Origin: Chromatiaceae bacterium
GTDB taxonomy: Bacteria; Pseudomonadota; Gammaproteobacteria; Chromatiales; Chromatiaceae
Direction of reading: 5' to 3'
DNA: 64,000 nt
Assembly: GCA_027078745.1 (NCBI GenBank)
Contig: JALWWO010000006.1
Span: 62,001-126,000 of the forward strand
Shown: one piece after another, positions 41,242 to 53,608 of the stretch
Position numbering within the stretch: the first letter of the stretch is position 1
Layout of the letters: every line of letters begins with the position of its first letter
Notes under the pieces: generated by a model
The model's database searches: none
Told to the model about the DNA's origin: nothing
The model's input: only the letters and a program-made list of their open reading frames with translations
Made by a program: the position numbers and the translations under genes

Positions 41242-41392
41242 ATCTCGGGAAACGGACGATTCGATTTTTGGGCCCAAGATAACAGAAAAAACACCGGATC
41301 ACAGGAGGCAGCCCGCTCTCTGCGCAGAACCGTGCTGCTTCTCCCCAACGGGATTTCGGTACACTAAATGATTTTGGAAAAGGAGGTCTTCG

Positions 41393-42145
41393 ATGCCTCG
41401 CTTGGCGGTGATCGGCGGTTCCGGATTTTCTTCCCTGCCCGGACTGCTGGCCCTGGAAACCATCGTCATTCGTAGCGCCTACGGTTTGCCCTCTGGCCCT
41501 GTCATTCGGGGGCGGTTGGGGGATCGGGAATTGTTCTTCCTGGCAAGACACGGGGAAGATCAACGAATTCCTCCCCACGATGTGAACTATCGCGCCAACA
41601 TCGACGGGCTCCGACAATGTGGGGCGGAATGGGTGGTGGGCTTGGGGGCCGTCGGCGGTATCGGGCCGCAGTACGGCCCCGGCGTCCTGGCAGTTCCCGA
41701 TCAACTCATCGATTACACCTATGGGCGCGCGCATACCTTCTTCACCGCAGGCACTGGCGGGAAGGAGGTCAATCATATCGAGTTCACGGAACCCTATTGC
41801 GAGCAGTTGCGCCAAGCGCTGTTGCGCAGTGGGGCTGCTGCTGAATTGCCCCTGATAGACGGGGGCACCTATGGGGCAACCCAGGGGCCCCGTTTGGAAA
41901 CCGCCGCCGAAGTGCGCCGCCTGGAGCGGGATGGGTGCGATCTGGTGGGCATGACCGGCATGCCGGAAGCTGCCTTAGCCCGAGAAGCAGGACTCTGCTA
42001 TGCCTGCTTGGCGTTCGTGGTCAACTGGGCGGCGGGAAAGGGTTCGGGAACCAGCCTGCTTTCCGAAATGCGCTGCCATCTGGATCGCTGCATCCAGGGC
42101 GTTGTTTCGGTCTTGGAAACGCTGGTGCGGACTCATGGGGATTGA
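41393..42145 (+). CDS. S-methyl-5'-thioinosine phosphorylase
   Basis: MtnP/PNP-family phosphorylase of the methionine salvage route that runs via methylthioinosine in gammaproteobacteria. It has 250 residues. GGSGFSSLPG is the phosphate loop, FLARHG and VNYRANIDGL follow, and YGATQGPRLETAAEVRR and DLVGMTGMPEAALARE form the base and ribose site. The second motif region is the feature that usually separates methylthioinosine from methylthioadenosine enzymes, though exact specificity is inferred. AAAGGAGG precedes the ATG. Confidence 0.9.
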   Translation: MPRLAVIGGSGFSSLPGLLALETIVIRSAYGLPSGPVIRGRLGDRELFFLARHGEDQRIPPHDVNYRANIDGLRQCGAEWVVGLGAVGGIGPQYGPGVLAVPDQLIDYTYGRAHTFFTAGTGGKEVNHIEFTEPYCEQLRQALLRSGAAAELPLIDGGTYGATQGPRLETAAEVRRLERDGCDLVGMTGMPEAALAREAGLCYACLAFVVNWAAGKGSGTSLLSEMRCHLDRCIQGVVSVLETLVRTHGD

Positions 42146-48421: not shown

Positions 48422-48495
48422 TGGCTGGGGGACTAGGATTCGAACCTAGATTGACGGAGTCAGAGTCCGCTGTCCTACCGTTGAACGATCCCCCA
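48422..48495 (-). tRNA. tRNA-Gln (anticodon CTG)
   Basis: The 74-base gene begins TGGGGGA and ends TCCCCCA-G-CCA, with the CCA encoded. The D arm is present, and the anticodon arm is GCGGA-CTCTGAC-TCCGT with CTG in the loop. The T arm is CTAGG-TTCGAAT-CCTAG. The 5' end lies only nine bases after the rpsI stop without a terminator between, so it is probably cut out of the ribosomal-protein message. Confidence 0.96.
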
Positions 48496-48504
48496 ATATT
48501 AACC

Positions 48505-48894
48505 TTAACGCTTCGAGTACTGAGGGCGCTTGCGGGCCTTGTGCAAGCCCACCTTCTTCCGCTCCACCTCTCGGGCATCTCGGGTAAGAAAGCCCGCCTT
48601 GCGCAGGGCCTTCCGCATCCCCTCATCATAGGCAACTAGGGCCCGGGCGATGCCGTGGCGAATGGCCCCCGCCTGGCCGGTGGTGCCCCCACCCTTCACC
48701 TGCACGCGGATGTCCACCCGGTCCAGCATGGAGACAGTTTCCAAAGGTTGGCGCACGACCATGCGTGCCGTCTCCCGTCCGAAGAACTGATCCAGGGGAC
48801 GACCATTGACCGTGATATTGCCCGAACCTGTGGTAAGAAATACCCGCGCAGTAGAACTCTTGCGGCGGCCAGTGGCATACTGAACTTCCGACAT
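48505..48894 (-). CDS. rpsI: 30S ribosomal protein S9
   Basis: It has 129 residues with the S9 signatures [34 protein letters not shown] and the C-terminal tail RKRPQYSKR that reaches the ribosomal P site. It follows rplM by 13 bases, as in most bacteria, and is followed directly by tRNA-Gln. Confidence 0.99.
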
Positions 48895-48907: not shown

Positions 48908-49336
48908 TCAGAGGGCTAGAGGCTTCGGCTGCTGGGCACTGTGCCGGTGGTGGGGACCCGCATAGACATGCAGCTTCCGCAACATAGCGCGCCCCAAGGG
49001 CCCCCGCGGTAACATCCCCTTGACTGCCTTTCGAATAACCTGTTCGGGATCCCGTTCCAGCAGCTTTCCCAAGCGGATGGATTTAAGGTTGCCCACATAG
49101 CCAGTGTGGCGATAATAGATCTTGTCCTGCAATTTGTTGCCCGTGACCCGGATCTTCTCCGCATTCACGACGATCAGATAATCCCCGGTATCCACGTGGG
49201 GGGTGTACTGGACTTTGTGCTTGCCCCGCAACCGCCGCGCTAACTCGCTCGCCAAGCGCCCGAGGGTTTGGCCCTGGGCATCCACCAGATACCATTCTCG
49301 GCGGACTTCCGCTGGCTTGGTGCTGATCGTTGTCAT
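48908..49336 (-). CDS. rplM: 50S ribosomal protein L13
   Basis: It has 142 residues. [35 protein letters not shown] and the C-terminal [18 protein letters not shown] identify L13. The ATG at 49336 gives the family length; the frame remains open upstream, but those residues are unrelated leader sequence. The leader contains a terminator-like hairpin, described separately, which may control expression of rplM, rpsI and tRNA-Gln. Confidence 0.99.
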
Positions 49337-49406
49337 TTCAGTGTTCCAAGTACCATCCGTTGACTTAAGGTAGGCGAAGATACAAGAAAATGCGTGTCCG
49401 CGCAAC

Positions 49407-49436
49407 AAAAAAAAGCGCAACAAGGAGAGTTGCGCT
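49407..49436 (-). terminator. Terminator-like hairpin inside the rplM leader
   Basis: On the minus strand AGCGCAAC and GTTGCGCT form a perfect 8-pair stem with a 7-base loop, followed by a T-run. It lies downstream of the likely promoter and about 70 bases before the rplM start codon. This suggests attenuation or a separate short RNA of about 90 bases. Confidence 0.7.
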
Positions 49437-49502
49437 CAACAACGTTAACCACCAAAGGAGGATAGAAAGGATGCTGATCGACAGCAGAATCAGCATGTTT
49501 TA

Positions 49503-49531
49503 ATATTCCCATATATCGATTCCCTTGTCAA
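49503..49531 (-). promoter_or_regulatory. Likely sigma70 promoter of rplM-rpsI-tRNA-Gln
   Basis: A consensus TTGACA (49526-49531 on the minus strand) is followed 17 bases later by GAATAT (49503-49508). Transcription would start near 49496, exactly at an 8-pair stem-loop (ATGCTGAT / ATCAGCAT, 49471-49496) that would cap the message. Confidence 0.65.
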
Positions 49532-50553: not shown

Positions 50554-51573
50554 TTACTCCTCCCATCTCAACGCATTGCCAGTCCGGTACTCCGTCGGGC
50601 GGGTCTCGAAGAAGTTCTTTTCCTTCCGTAGGCTGAGCTGCTCGCTCATCCAAGGGAAGCGATGCTCTGCATTAAACAGGGGGGGTAACCCCATCTGCTT
50701 CAGGCGCAAATCCGCGTACCATTTCGCGGTTTCCACATGATCTTCCGCGCTGTAGCCAAGGATGGGATCGGGTAGGCAGTACCGGATGTAGTCGGCTTCC
50801 AGATCGATGACCTTTTGAAACAGCCCCTGCACCCCCCGTAGAAACCCTTCAGTGAAACACTCTGGGTGCTGTTCCCGAAAGGCTTGGATCAAATACTGCC
50901 CAAAGCGGATATGCTGGACTTCATCCCGAAAGATGAATTGAAATTGCTCCGCTGCACCAGTGAATTTCCCTTGCCTCGCAAGGTTTTGAATGGGGCCGGT
51001 CAACCCCATGACGAACCAAATGCCTTCGAAACCAAGGAACCAGAAGATCGCTGCGAAGATCACTTCCTGTTTTTCCCGCAGAGTCAATGGGGCTTCTGGT
51101 TGAAGAATTCGCTTGGCCAACACATGTTGGGCTCGCGTGGAAATCGTCTTGGCTAGGTCTACCCGCGCTCGCATCGAGGGTACTCGTTCGTACCGGCTAT
51201 AGATCTCCTGCTGGTCTAGCTCCATATTTTCGATAATGAATTGGTATGAATAGGTGTGCAAAGCTTCTTCATCTGCTAGGCGCTTCAGGTAGTGCTTGAT
51301 CTCCGGCGGATTCAGCAGCCCTTGCAGGGTCTCTGCGGTCTCGTCCCCCCGCTGCACATCGAAAGTCGTGAGTTGAGCCATGATGGAGAGAAATAAATGC
51401 CGTTCTTCCTCCGTGAGCCGGTCGGACTTCCATAGGGCTACATCCGTCCCCATAGAGATTTCCCGCGGCGACCAATGGTTGTCCATGTTCTCTAGGTACA
51501 TGTCCCACGCCCATGGATAAGCCAGGGGGAAGAGTTGTAGGGAATCTGAGGTGCCAAAGAGGGGTTTATTCAT
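50554..51573 (-). CDS. nrdB: Class I ribonucleotide reductase small subunit
   Basis: Holds the metal-radical cofactor for deoxyribonucleotide synthesis. It has 339 residues. Ligand positions can be followed: Asp in LTTFDVQ, Glu and His in DEEALHTYSY with the Tyr four residues after His as the likely radical site, Glu in FLGFEGIWF, and Glu and His in FRDEVQHIRFG. This supports a tyrosyl type, not the Phe-bearing class Ic. The large subunit gene is not adjacent. The start overlaps the soxB stop in an ATGA, an unusual coupling. Confidence 0.94.
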   Translation of the reverse strand: MNKPLFGTSDSLQLFPLAYPWAWDMYLENMDNHWSPREISMGTDVALWKSDRLTEEERHLFLSIMAQLTTFDVQRGDETAETLQGLLNPPEIKHYLKRLADEEALHTYSYQFIIENMELDQQEIYSRYERVPSMRARVDLAKTISTRAQHVLAKRILQPEAPLTLREKQEVIFAAIFWFLGFEGIWFVMGLTGPIQNLARQGKFTGAAEQFQFIFRDEVQHIRFGQYLIQAFREQHPECFTEGFLRGVQGLFQKVIDLEADYIRYCLPDPILGYSAEDHVETAKWYADLRLKQMGLPPLFNAEHRFPWMSEQLSLRKEKNFFETRPTEYRTGNALRWEE

Positions 51574-53351
51574 GCGAGTCGTTCGTAGTCAGCGATGCCA
51601 GGATTGTTCCGCACGCCCTTGAGCAGGGGCGTGTTGCGCCGTTCGATGCGGATTGTCTTGCGGTCTCGGAGATAGGTGGCCACTGTCTCCCAGATGGGTT
51701 CCCCCGGGGATTGGCTCCCCACAGTGGCCCAGCCCGCCACTGTATAGCTTTTGTTCGCCTCGATGGGGGTGCCATCCTCCAAAGCCATCCCTTGAATGCG
51801 CTTGCCGAACCCCTGGTTGGGATCGCAGACATAATCTAAGCCACCCACGCGCACCATGTCGCCGCCCTGTTGGAAATAGGGGTCTGGGTTGAACAGATTG
51901 TCGCAGACATCTTCCAGAATTGCCTTGAGCTCCGAACCCTTCATCGTGCGGCGGTAGGTTTCGGGATAGGTGATGGCGGTTTGATCCAACACTTGCTCCA
52001 GAGTGATGGGCTGCCCGGGCAACACTGTCGTGCCCCACCGGAAGCCCGGGGACAGGCTGATCTGGGCATCCTTCACGGTCCGCAGGGCATCGCAGATCAG
52101 TTGATCGAAGGTACCGTTGAAGTTGCCCCGCCGATAGAGGGTTTCCTCCGCAACCGCTAACTTCTCTCCCAACCGAGCTTCGTAAGGAGCGCGGATCTTC
52201 TGAATCTGGCGGCGCATCTGGGGATCGGCTTTCAGCAGTTCCGAGAACACGGGTAACAACCGATACCGGAAGTCCCGCACCCGATTGTGCTGGATCTTCA
52301 GATCCAGCACGCCTAAGAACTTGCCGTTGGAACCCGCATTGGTCACCAGGGTCTTGCCGTTTTTGTTCGATACGATGCTGGGCGCGGGCATCCCGTCGTG
52401 GGTGTGTCCCCCTAGGATGGCATCGATGCCGGAAACCCGCGCCGCTAGTTTGAGATCTACATCCATGCCATTGTGAGAGAGGAGAACCAGAGCCGCCGGC
52501 GATTCCTGTTCCCGAATCCGATCCACCAGAGCTTGCAGAGCTGCTTCCTGAATGCCGAAGGTCCAATCCGGAATGAAGCGGGCTGGGTTGGCGATGGGTG
52601 TGTAGGGGAATGCCTGGCCGATGACCGCGATTCGATGGCCGCCTACTTCCTTAATTACATAAGGTTTGAAGGCAAGCCCTGTGTCCTCATCGAAGTCCGG
52701 GAAATCCTCGAAGGGATAGTCGAACAGGGATTCTTCCCGCACCCGGATGTTCTGGGCCACGAAATCCCCCCGAAACGCCTGCACATTTTCGAGCACTTCC
52801 GATTCCCGATAGGTGAATTCCCAATGGCCGGTCATCACCTCCACCCCCAGGAGATTGCAGGCTTCCACCATGTCCCGCCCCCGAGTCCAATAGGCGGTGC
52901 CCGAACCCTGCCAGGTGTCGCCTCCGTCCAGCAGCAAGCAGTTTTGTGCTCCCCGTTCTGCGCGGATGCGATCGATCAGGGTTTTGAGATGGGCGAAGCC
53001 CCCCATCCGGCCATAGCGGACTGCTGCCGCTTCAAAATCCAGATAGGTGAAAGCGTGGGCTTCCCGCCCGCCGGCGGGGATGCCGAAATGCTGGAGCAGC
53101 GCCTTGCCCACCAGATGAGGGGCCCGCCCCCGCGCCGGACCGATGCCCAGATTTACATTGGGTTCCCGGAAATAGATAGGATTGAGCTGGGCATGGGTGT
53201 CGGTAATATGCAACAGTGTTGCATTTCCGAAGGCAGGCAATTCATAAAAATCTTCGGATCGCTGGCGCTGGTGGCTGGCGACAGTGGAAAAAACGCCCAA
53301 ACTGCTGGCGAGACCAAAGAGTTGGAGGAATGCACGGCGAGAAAGAGACAT
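51570..53351 (-). CDS. soxB: Thiosulfohydrolase SoxB
   Basis: Periplasmic dimanganese enzyme that releases sulfate from SoxY-bound thiosulfonate in thiosulfate oxidation. The 593-residue protein has a Tat signal (LSRRAFLQLFG) and the metallophosphoesterase motifs HITDTHAQLNP, LLDGGDTWQGS, TGHWEFTYRE, LLSHNGMD and ILGGHTHD. The 5'-nucleotidase C-terminal domain ends in LKGVRNNPG as in SoxB. REPNVNLGIG is a SoxB-specific signature. No soxXYZA genes are in the window. The downstream gene overlaps it by four bases and is nrdB. Confidence 0.95.
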   Translation of the reverse strand: MSLSRRAFLQLFGLASSLGVFSTVASHQRQRSEDFYELPAFGNATLLHITDTHAQLNPIYFREPNVNLGIGPARGRAPHLVGKALLQHFGIPAGGREAHAFTYLDFEAAAVRYGRMGGFAHLKTLIDRIRAERGAQNCLLLDGGDTWQGSGTAYWTRGRDMVEACNLLGVEVMTGHWEFTYRESEVLENVQAFRGDFVAQNIRVREESLFDYPFEDFPDFDEDTGLAFKPYVIKEVGGHRIAVIGQAFPYTPIANPARFIPDWTFGIQEAALQALVDRIREQESPAALVLLSHNGMDVDLKLAARVSGIDAILGGHTHDGMPAPSIVSNKNGKTLVTNAGSNGKFLGVLDLKIQHNRVRDFRYRLLPVFSELLKADPQMRRQIQKIRAPYEARLGEKLAVAEETLYRRGNFNGTFDQLICDALRTVKDAQISLSPGFRWGTTVLPGQPITLEQVLDQTAITYPETYRRTMKGSELKAILEDVCDNLFNPDPYFQQGGDMVRVGGLDYVCDPNQGFGKRIQGMALEDGTPIEANKSYTVAGWATVGSQSPGEPIWETVATYLRDRKTIRIERRNTPLLKGVRNNPGIADYERLA

Positions 53352-53608
53352 GATTTTCGTTCCGCTGGTAGCATTGTATCCATCATAGCAGGCGGGAGGC
53401 ATGCAAACATGCTTCTCGCATCGTCATCCGGTGTTCTCCAGGTCTTCGAACCCCGGAAAAACGCTTGTTCACCTCCAGAGCAACCCCATATAATTCAACG
53501 CTTATCCAAGAGATAGGGTAGAGATTTGCCGCCTCCGGTCCCCTGGGACCAGCACGCGGAAAATCAATCCCCTTCCCAATCCAGGAAACGAACGGAGGGA
53601 TTATTATC

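What the first reader, a model, noticed from the sequence alone, without database searches (positions are those of the whole stretch)
49337..49531. rplM-rpsI-tRNA-Gln leader with a terminator before the first codon
A consensus promoter would start the RNA at a perfect 5' stem-loop. An intrinsic terminator (8-pair stem plus T-run) follows about 60-90 bases on, still about 70 bases short of the L13 start. This is the structure of an attenuator, possibly an L13-responsive leader, or of an independent short RNA. L13 leaders with such control are known mainly from Firmicutes, so this would be new in this group.
Basis: partly seen in the sequence, partly recalled or inferred. Interest (0 to 1): 0.6.

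Follow-up and report, generated by a model that had tools for sequence, protein, structure and literature searches.

The report
Widespread anti-Shine-Dalgarno sRNA beside rplM
The structure in front of the L13 ribosomal-protein gene is most likely not a switch for that gene but a separate small regulatory RNA of about 90 bases, one member of a family found in many gamma-proteobacteria, that probably lowers translation of other mRNAs by pairing with their ribosome-binding sites.

Summary
The anatomy is real: TTGACA promoter, 5' stem-loop at the predicted start (49496), terminator ending at 49407, 70 nt before rplM. The attenuator reading is not supported. The element is a self-contained sRNA gene with the anti-Shine-Dalgarno core CCTCCTTTGGTGG. 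Its genome has a second copy elsewhere, with its own TTGACA box and terminator. The core (one mismatch allowed) is in 75 of 96 family genomes; reversed control 2 of 96. A covariance model finds 110 of 274 class genomes, at least 23 of them seed genomes. In 71 of 212 copies rplM follows, and there it has its own promoter after the sRNA terminator: 67 of 71 beat the 95th percentile of shuffles. The window is one of the four that do not. The nearest known family is RF02278 (Betaproteobacteria toxic sRNA; Bordetella S17 is related); the window copy scores 19.5 against a gathering score of 50, so it is a probable relative, not a formal member. Most likely function: Hfq-assisted repression at ribosome-binding sites of a limited set of mRNAs. 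Expression and targets are untested.

The parts
49503..49531 (-). sRNA promoter: -35 TTGACA (49531-49526), 17-bp spacer, -10 GAATAT (49508-49503), AT-rich discriminator
   Evidence: exact TTGACA 54-100 nt upstream of the motif in 140 of 210 copies, against a mean of 2.7 and a maximum of 7 in 50 mononucleotide shuffles
49407..49496 (-). sRNA gene, about 90 nt
   Evidence: model R1 62.0 bits, E 3.8e-12 in its own genome (the window copy is one of the model's seeds)
49471..49496 (-). 5' stem-loop
   Evidence: 5' part z -3.65; mean z -3.4 over 177 copies
49449..49465 (-). middle element CTATC-CTCCTTT-GGTGG: weak hairpin presenting the anti-Shine-Dalgarno stretch; CCTCCTTTGGTGG (49461-49449) is invariant in 69 of 69 aligned copies, a set chosen by this motif
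49407..49437 (-). intrinsic terminator, run of 8 T at 49414-49407
   Evidence: changes on both sides in all 8 counted pairs of the family's terminator stem
49377..49405 (-). position of the separate rplM promoter: TTGCGC (49405-49400), 17 bp, TATCTT (49382-49377), GC-rich discriminator; start about 49370
   Evidence: strong in relatives, weak in the window (leave-one-out score -2.2, reached by 22% of its shuffles)
48908..49336 (-). rplM (L13)
48505..48894 (-). rpsI (S9)
48422..48495 (-). tRNA-Gln (anticodon CTG)

Best explanation
The element is a free-standing sRNA gene, one of at least two paralogues in this genome, that sits (as in many related families) between an upstream gene and rplM. 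It is transcribed from its own TTGACA promoter and stopped by its own terminator; rplM is transcribed from a second promoter downstream. The RNA has a 5' stem-loop, a conserved C/U-rich middle (CCUCCUUUGGUGG) that presents an anti-Shine-Dalgarno stretch in or beside a small hairpin, and a GC-rich terminator with 8 U that could bind Hfq. It most likely works by Hfq-assisted pairing of CUCCUUU with GGAG-containing ribosome-binding sites of a limited set of mRNAs, lowering their translation, as shown for the beta-proteobacterial S17. Shown here: sequence conservation, covariation of the terminator, copy number, synteny, the separate rplM promoter in relatives, presence of an Hfq gene. Inferred: expression, Hfq binding, targets, direction of regulation, and use of the downstream rplM promoter in the window.
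For: Second copy at an unrelated locus with own TTGACA box and terminator. Core with at most one mismatch in 75 of 96 family genomes, reversed control 2 of 96. Terminator stem covaries (8 of 8 pairs with both-sided changes; 41 both-sided cells in the whole structure against 9.3 in shuffles); 5' segment folds at mean z -3.4 in 177 copies. Model R1: 110 of 274 class genomes; without the 23 genomes known to have supplied seeds, 87 of 251. A sample of 150 phylum genomes gives 6, only 2 of them outside the class and both borderline (E 6e-5 and 1e-4). rplM downstream on the same strand in 71 of 212 copies (112-926 nt from motif to ATG), with its own promoter in 67 of 71, TTG at exactly 17 bp in 66 of 71. 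In 50 rplM loci taken without regard to the RNA, 13 carry it upstream (2 of the 13 were seeds). Hfq gene present, 103 bits against a cut-off of 27. S17 represses BP2158 translation through its single-stranded C/U site, with compensatory mutations (PMC11722255, passages).
Against: No transcript data. In the window the rplM promoter is weak, so read-through from the sRNA promoter could feed rplM there. The window copy has CCTTTCT in place of the first anti-SD stretch CTCCTCC that most aligned relatives keep. Helix 1 (middle hairpin) shows no both-sided compensatory change. A perfect complement AAAGGAGG 3-10 nt before ATG is not enriched in the genome (9 sites against 7 for the reversed pattern), and 1 of the 9 is the sRNA's own opposite strand. 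37 of 50 rplM loci do not carry the RNA upstream at E 0.1, so rplM does not need it.
Confidence: 0.85

Rival explanations
1. rplM attenuator: the upstream promoter makes the rplM mRNA and the terminator is a regulated switch (L13, or another signal).
For: Same strand, short distance, upstream position kept in 71 of 212 copies; rplM promoter weak in the window.
Against: Conserved separate rplM promoter after the terminator in 67 of 71 linked loci; same RNA at loci without rplM, including antisense between queA and tgt; no Rfam L13 leader. An alternative anti-terminator fold was not searched for.
Confidence: 0.05
2. Both: an independent sRNA whose leaky terminator also lets some transcription run into rplM, so that the sRNA promoter contributes to rplM in this species.
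For: The gap between T-run and rplM is the shortest of 71 (74 nt with the first four coding bases) and the rplM promoter there is weak.
Against: Strong stem with 8 T; most linked relatives have a strong rplM promoter.
Confidence: 0.2
3. The RNA acts on the ribosome or a protein (a titrating anti-Shine-Dalgarno mimic) rather than on particular mRNAs.
For: Invariant CCUCCUUU resembles the 3' end of 16S rRNA (recalled); the RF02278 RNAs were named toxic for inhibiting growth in E. coli (PMC5688073, figure legend).
Against: S17 pairs with defined mRNAs, and its overexpression in E. coli left exponential growth unimpaired and slowed only entry into stationary phase (PMC11722255, passages).
Confidence: 0.06

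Closest known systems
RF02278 Betaproteobacteria toxic sRNA / double-hairpin RNAs (ncS03, ncS05, ncS27, ncS62 of Burkholderia cenocepacia)
   Same: C/U-rich stretches complementary to ribosome-binding sites, a small hairpin followed by a terminator hairpin with U tail, several dispersed copies per genome (PMC5688073, passages and Discussion). The copy of a Gallionellaceae genome (L173), which holds the same 22-base core, passes the gathering score (51.8 against 50).
   Different: Window copy 19.5 bits and second copy 23.9 against 50; in the own genome an unrelated-looking place scores as high (24.6); an additional 5' stem-loop; rplM or queA/tgt loci.
Bordetella pertussis S17
   Same: C/U-rich seed region plus terminator; gene next to coq7 (PMC11722255, passages); 22 of 212 copies here have coq7 upstream.
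   Different: The abundant S17S is cut from a 190-nt precursor by RNase E; here a promoter abuts the 5' stem-loop. The S17 sequence is not in the text held, so identity was not tested.
NmsR sibling sRNAs (Neisseria), ar14, suhB/mmgR, RsaE/RoxS
   Same: NmsR: C/U-rich unpaired stretches complementary to ribosome-binding sites (PMC5688073 Discussion); for these families weak Rfam matches below cut-off to copies of this RNA.
   Different: No match over a gathering score; overall structures differ (recalled).
L13 ribosomal leaders (E. coli, Firmicutes, Bacteroidetes)
   Same: Lie upstream of rplM.
   Different: This element ends in its own terminator before the rplM promoter of relatives and occurs without rplM.

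Membership tests
RF02278 Betaproteobacteria toxic sRNA | covariance-model score at or above the gathering score of 50 bits | tested here: not met
   window 19.5, second copy 23.9; 1 of 20 loci scanned passes (L173); 1 of 143 class genomes over the cut-off; in the own genome the best RF02278 match (24.6 bits) is at another place
RF02278 Betaproteobacteria toxic sRNA | hairpin with C/U-rich anti-SD loop followed by terminator hairpin and U tail | tested here: met
   (the middle hairpin is weak in the window copy)
RF02278 Betaproteobacteria toxic sRNA | growth inhibition on overexpression | not testable with these tools
   needs an experiment
S17 / RF02278 locus | neighbourhood of coq7 | tested here: inconclusive
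   coq7 upstream in 22 of 212 copies; in two genomes with strong RF02278-like copies one copy each lies within 0.8 kb of coq7 with an osmC-like gene between, a further copy does not; orientation relative to coq7 differs from the rplM-linked copies; no coq7 match in the about 1.4-1.5 kb upstream of the window copy that L001 and L259 hold
L13 ribosomal leader | match to a known L13 leader | tested here: not met
   no Rfam match
L13 ribosomal leader | part of the rplM mRNA | tested here: inconclusive
   separate rplM promoter downstream in 67 of 71 linked loci, but weak in the window; no transcript data
Hfq-dependent trans-acting sRNA | own promoter, intrinsic terminator with U tail, C/U-rich seed, Hfq gene in the genome | tested here: met
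Hfq-dependent trans-acting sRNA | Hfq binding and regulation of a target mRNA | not testable with these tools
   needs an experiment

The most novel reading that the evidence does not exclude
sRNA and rplM form an old two-promoter module with opposite growth-state control: rplM promoters carry a GC-rich discriminator (about 95% G+C over five positions, from the matrix), as expected for stringent control (which E. coli rplM-rpsI shows, PMC10931766 passage), while the sRNA promoters carry an AT-rich one (about 35% G+C over six positions, 139 copies). When growth stops, the ribosomal operon would go down and the anti-Shine-Dalgarno RNA up, so that one locus would lower both ribosome production and translation of chosen mRNAs in many gamma-proteobacteria.
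Probability: 0.2. Interest if true: 0.75.

Novelty: new variant of a known kind. Interest (0 to 1): 0.6.

Why it matters
An anti-Shine-Dalgarno sRNA type that Rfam labels betaproteobacterial appears to have a broad branch in the gamma-proteobacteria, with many named carriers among sulfur oxidisers (lifestyle recalled), often at a ribosomal-protein locus. In the rows that the paper searches listed (lists capped, open-licence library only) no description of it in these bacteria was seen; one paper annotates a 'betaproteobacteria toxic small RNA' in the gamma-proteobacterium Aeromonas salmonicida (PMC8780938, one passage). It would give these bacteria a candidate post-transcriptional regulator, and shows how an apparent leader can be a neighbouring gene.

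Tried and rejected
L13-leader and attenuator readings: rejected as main explanation. Global blocking of strong Shine-Dalgarno sequences: not supported by the own-genome pattern count (9 against 7); of the 9 sites two precede an open frame over 100 aa, an MTA/MTI-phosphorylase-like protein (window 41379) and a methyltransferase-like protein (names recalled from the translations). Membership in RF02278 by score: rejected. At E <= 1 the RF02278 model rings in 11 of 14 control genomes and its best match in the own genome is not one of the two copies; at E <= 1e-4 it rings in 0 of 14 controls, so only the strict threshold was used. Search of plasmid records with the L173 copy: one short match in one record. 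A strict 23-base pattern in the phylum, one mismatch allowed: 2 of 398 genomes, the own one included, so the exact sequence is lineage-bound although the structure is wider. In the own genome model R1 also gives a third, weak place (26.2 bits, E 0.006) and a fourth at E 0.66, not followed. Covariation of the 5' stem-loop could not be counted well because loop lengths differ; shuffled folding energies were used instead. Helix 1 is conserved but shows no compensatory change. RNAalifold of the 69-row alignment found the terminator and part of the middle hairpin, not the 5' stem.

Dropped rows and limits: of the 212 motif places, 5 (L068, L135-L138) look like chance matches without a T-run at the set distance and stay in the 212. 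2 were left out of the promoter count (210) because too little upstream DNA is held. 35 were left out of the 177-copy set for want of a T-run or a TTGACA with at least 5 of 6 at the set distance; since 5 of 6 also occurs by chance (mean 48 of 210 in shuffles), some starts in that set may be misplaced. The 69 rows of A1 were picked by eye from a non-redundant list of 106. The structure counted was drawn by me on a MAFFT alignment. In one search sites were first placed on all 71 gaps; only the matrix was left-one-out. Class-wide rplM linkage (23 of 30 loci) rests on the best-scoring hits, many of them seeds.

Full report
What is there. On the - strand the intergenic stretch before rplM holds, in order: TTGACA (49531-49526), a 17-bp spacer, GAATAT (49508-49503), a stem-loop that begins at the predicted start 49496 and ends at 49471, the stretch CTATCCTCCTTTGGTGGT, a terminator stem from 49437 and 8 T to 49407, then 70 nt to the L13 ATG at 49336. 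rplM, rpsI and tRNA-Gln follow. Rfam finds only the tRNA in the window at gathering scores.

Not confined to rplM. A search of the window's own genome with 100 bases of the element found a second copy (80% identity over query positions 34-93) on another contig, again with TTGACA upstream and a terminator, between a tryptophan-synthase-beta-like gene and a gene with many CxxCH motifs (names recalled from the translations). The 16-base core with at most one mismatch is in 75 of 96 genomes of the family and the reversed pattern in 2 of 96. One genome of the window's family has a contig of the same length (5,069,971) as Thiocapsa sp. KS1, which suggests that the window belongs to the Chromatiaceae (family of Thiocapsa, recalled); the organism itself was not named.

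Structure. In 69 aligned copies CCTCCTTTGGTGG is invariant; these were selected by that motif, so the stems are the better evidence. The terminator stem covaries. The 5' segment folds with a mean z of -3.4 over 177 copies although its sequence differs. The middle hairpin CCAUC/GGUGG with loop CUCCUUU is paired in 95% of cells but never changes on both sides, and in the window it is weak. Exact TTGACA lies at the set distance in 140 of 210 copies against a mean of 2.7 in mononucleotide shuffles, followed by a conserved TATATTAGAAAAT-like block.

Neighbours. Of 212 copies, 71 have rplM downstream on the same strand (motif to ATG 112-926 nt). 72 have queA or tgt within 3 kb, 51 of them both, with the sRNA antisense to them. 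57 have none of the seven genes looked for. Among 108 family copies 24 are rplM-linked (under 600 nt) and 45 lie by queA or tgt. In 50 rplM loci taken without regard to the RNA (29 genomes of the family, 21 of 21 other families of the class), 13 carry the RNA upstream, 8 of 29 and 5 of 21; two of the 13 were seeds. In the class-wide model search 23 of the 30 loci returned, the best-scoring ones, have rplM beside the RNA.

The rplM promoter. In the 71 rplM-linked loci the sequence between the sRNA's T-run and the rplM ATG holds a second promoter, cTTG-N17-gTAATATtCGCGCtCTTT. Leave-one-out scores beat the 95th percentile of shuffles in 67 of 71, and TTG is exactly 17 bp upstream in 66 of 71. The window is one of the four that fail (score -2.2, reached by 22% of its shuffles); it has TTGCGC-17-TATCTT followed by a GC-rich stretch at the matching place. 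So in most linked relatives the sRNA is unlikely to be part of the main rplM transcript; for the window this is by analogy.

Family. The best Rfam leads for the window copy are sub-threshold: ncS54 23.5 bits, Hrs13 21.8, RF02278 19.5; the second copy gives ncS54 24.9 and RF02278 23.9 among others. RF02278 passes only in the Gallionellaceae copy among 20 loci and in 1 of 143 class genomes. At E 1e-4 it touches 32 of 143, with 0 of 14 control genomes; at E 1 it rings in 11 of 14 controls, and in the own genome its best match lies at a place that is neither copy. A covariance model from 29 sequences finds 110 of 274 class genomes; at least 23 of these supplied seeds, so 87 of the other 251 are independent. 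In a phylum sample that consists largely of other lineages it finds 6 of 150, 2 of them outside the class with E 6e-5 and 1e-4. E-values of such models are rough. In two genomes with RF02278-like copies (taken as beta-proteobacteria by inference) one copy each lies within 0.8 kb of coq7, with an osmC-like gene between, while a further copy in one of them does not. Bordetella S17 lies next to coq7 (PMC11722255, passages), and 22 of 212 copies here have coq7 upstream. This suggests one old locus; orientations differ and no coq7 was found beside the window copy, so it is suggestive only.

Mechanism. By analogy with S17, which represses BP2158 translation through its C/U-rich single-stranded site as shown by compensatory mutations (PMC11722255, passages), and with the double-hairpin RNAs of Burkholderia (PMC5688073, passages and Discussion), the RNA most likely pairs with ribosome-binding sites with the help of Hfq, whose gene the genome has. 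Perfect AAAGGAGG sites before ATG are not enriched, so a limited target set is more likely than global blocking. Nothing here shows expression.

Verdict. An independent sRNA gene of a broad, apparently undescribed gamma-proteobacterial branch of a known kind of sRNA. The absence from print rests on the rows listed in the searches, in an open-licence library only. Of the papers, PMC5688073 was seen in passages and its Discussion; PMC11722255, PMC7247131, PMC10931766 and PMC8780938 in passages; all others in search listings only.

Noticed in passing
L033, L049, L065, L090, L095, L133, L139 (5' of the motif): A longer subtype: a long hairpin with a conserved inner stretch like GCCAAAGGCAGTATCGTAGTAGTG in place of the short 5' stem-loop, in 4 of the 7 downstream of a dapE-like gene (name recalled); no Rfam match over the gathering score in the 6 of 7 loci scanned.
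   Followed up: partly
L192 5782-6024: Three copies of the 22-base core within 250 bases in a Thiotrichaceae genome.
   Followed up: no
L032 1501-1596 (-): Second copy in the window's own genome, between a tryptophan-synthase-beta-like gene and a multihaem-cytochrome-like gene.
   Followed up: partly
queA-tgt loci of the family, e.g. L106, L074: A second frequent home of the sRNA, antisense to queA and tgt (72 of 212 copies have at least one of the two within 3 kb).
   Followed up: partly
sRNA promoters of the family: A conserved TATATTA-like block just upstream of the -10 in addition to TTGACA, perhaps a regulator site.
   Followed up: no
L316 (G000:C8:43891-43935): A weak third match to the sRNA model in the own genome (26.2 bits, E 0.006).
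   Followed up: no
41379-41395: Perfect AAAGGAGG, complementary to the sRNA, in front of an MTA/MTI-phosphorylase-like gene: a candidate target.
   Followed up: no
51570-53402: SoxB-like protein on the - strand, which fits a sulfur oxidiser (recalled from the translation).
   Followed up: no
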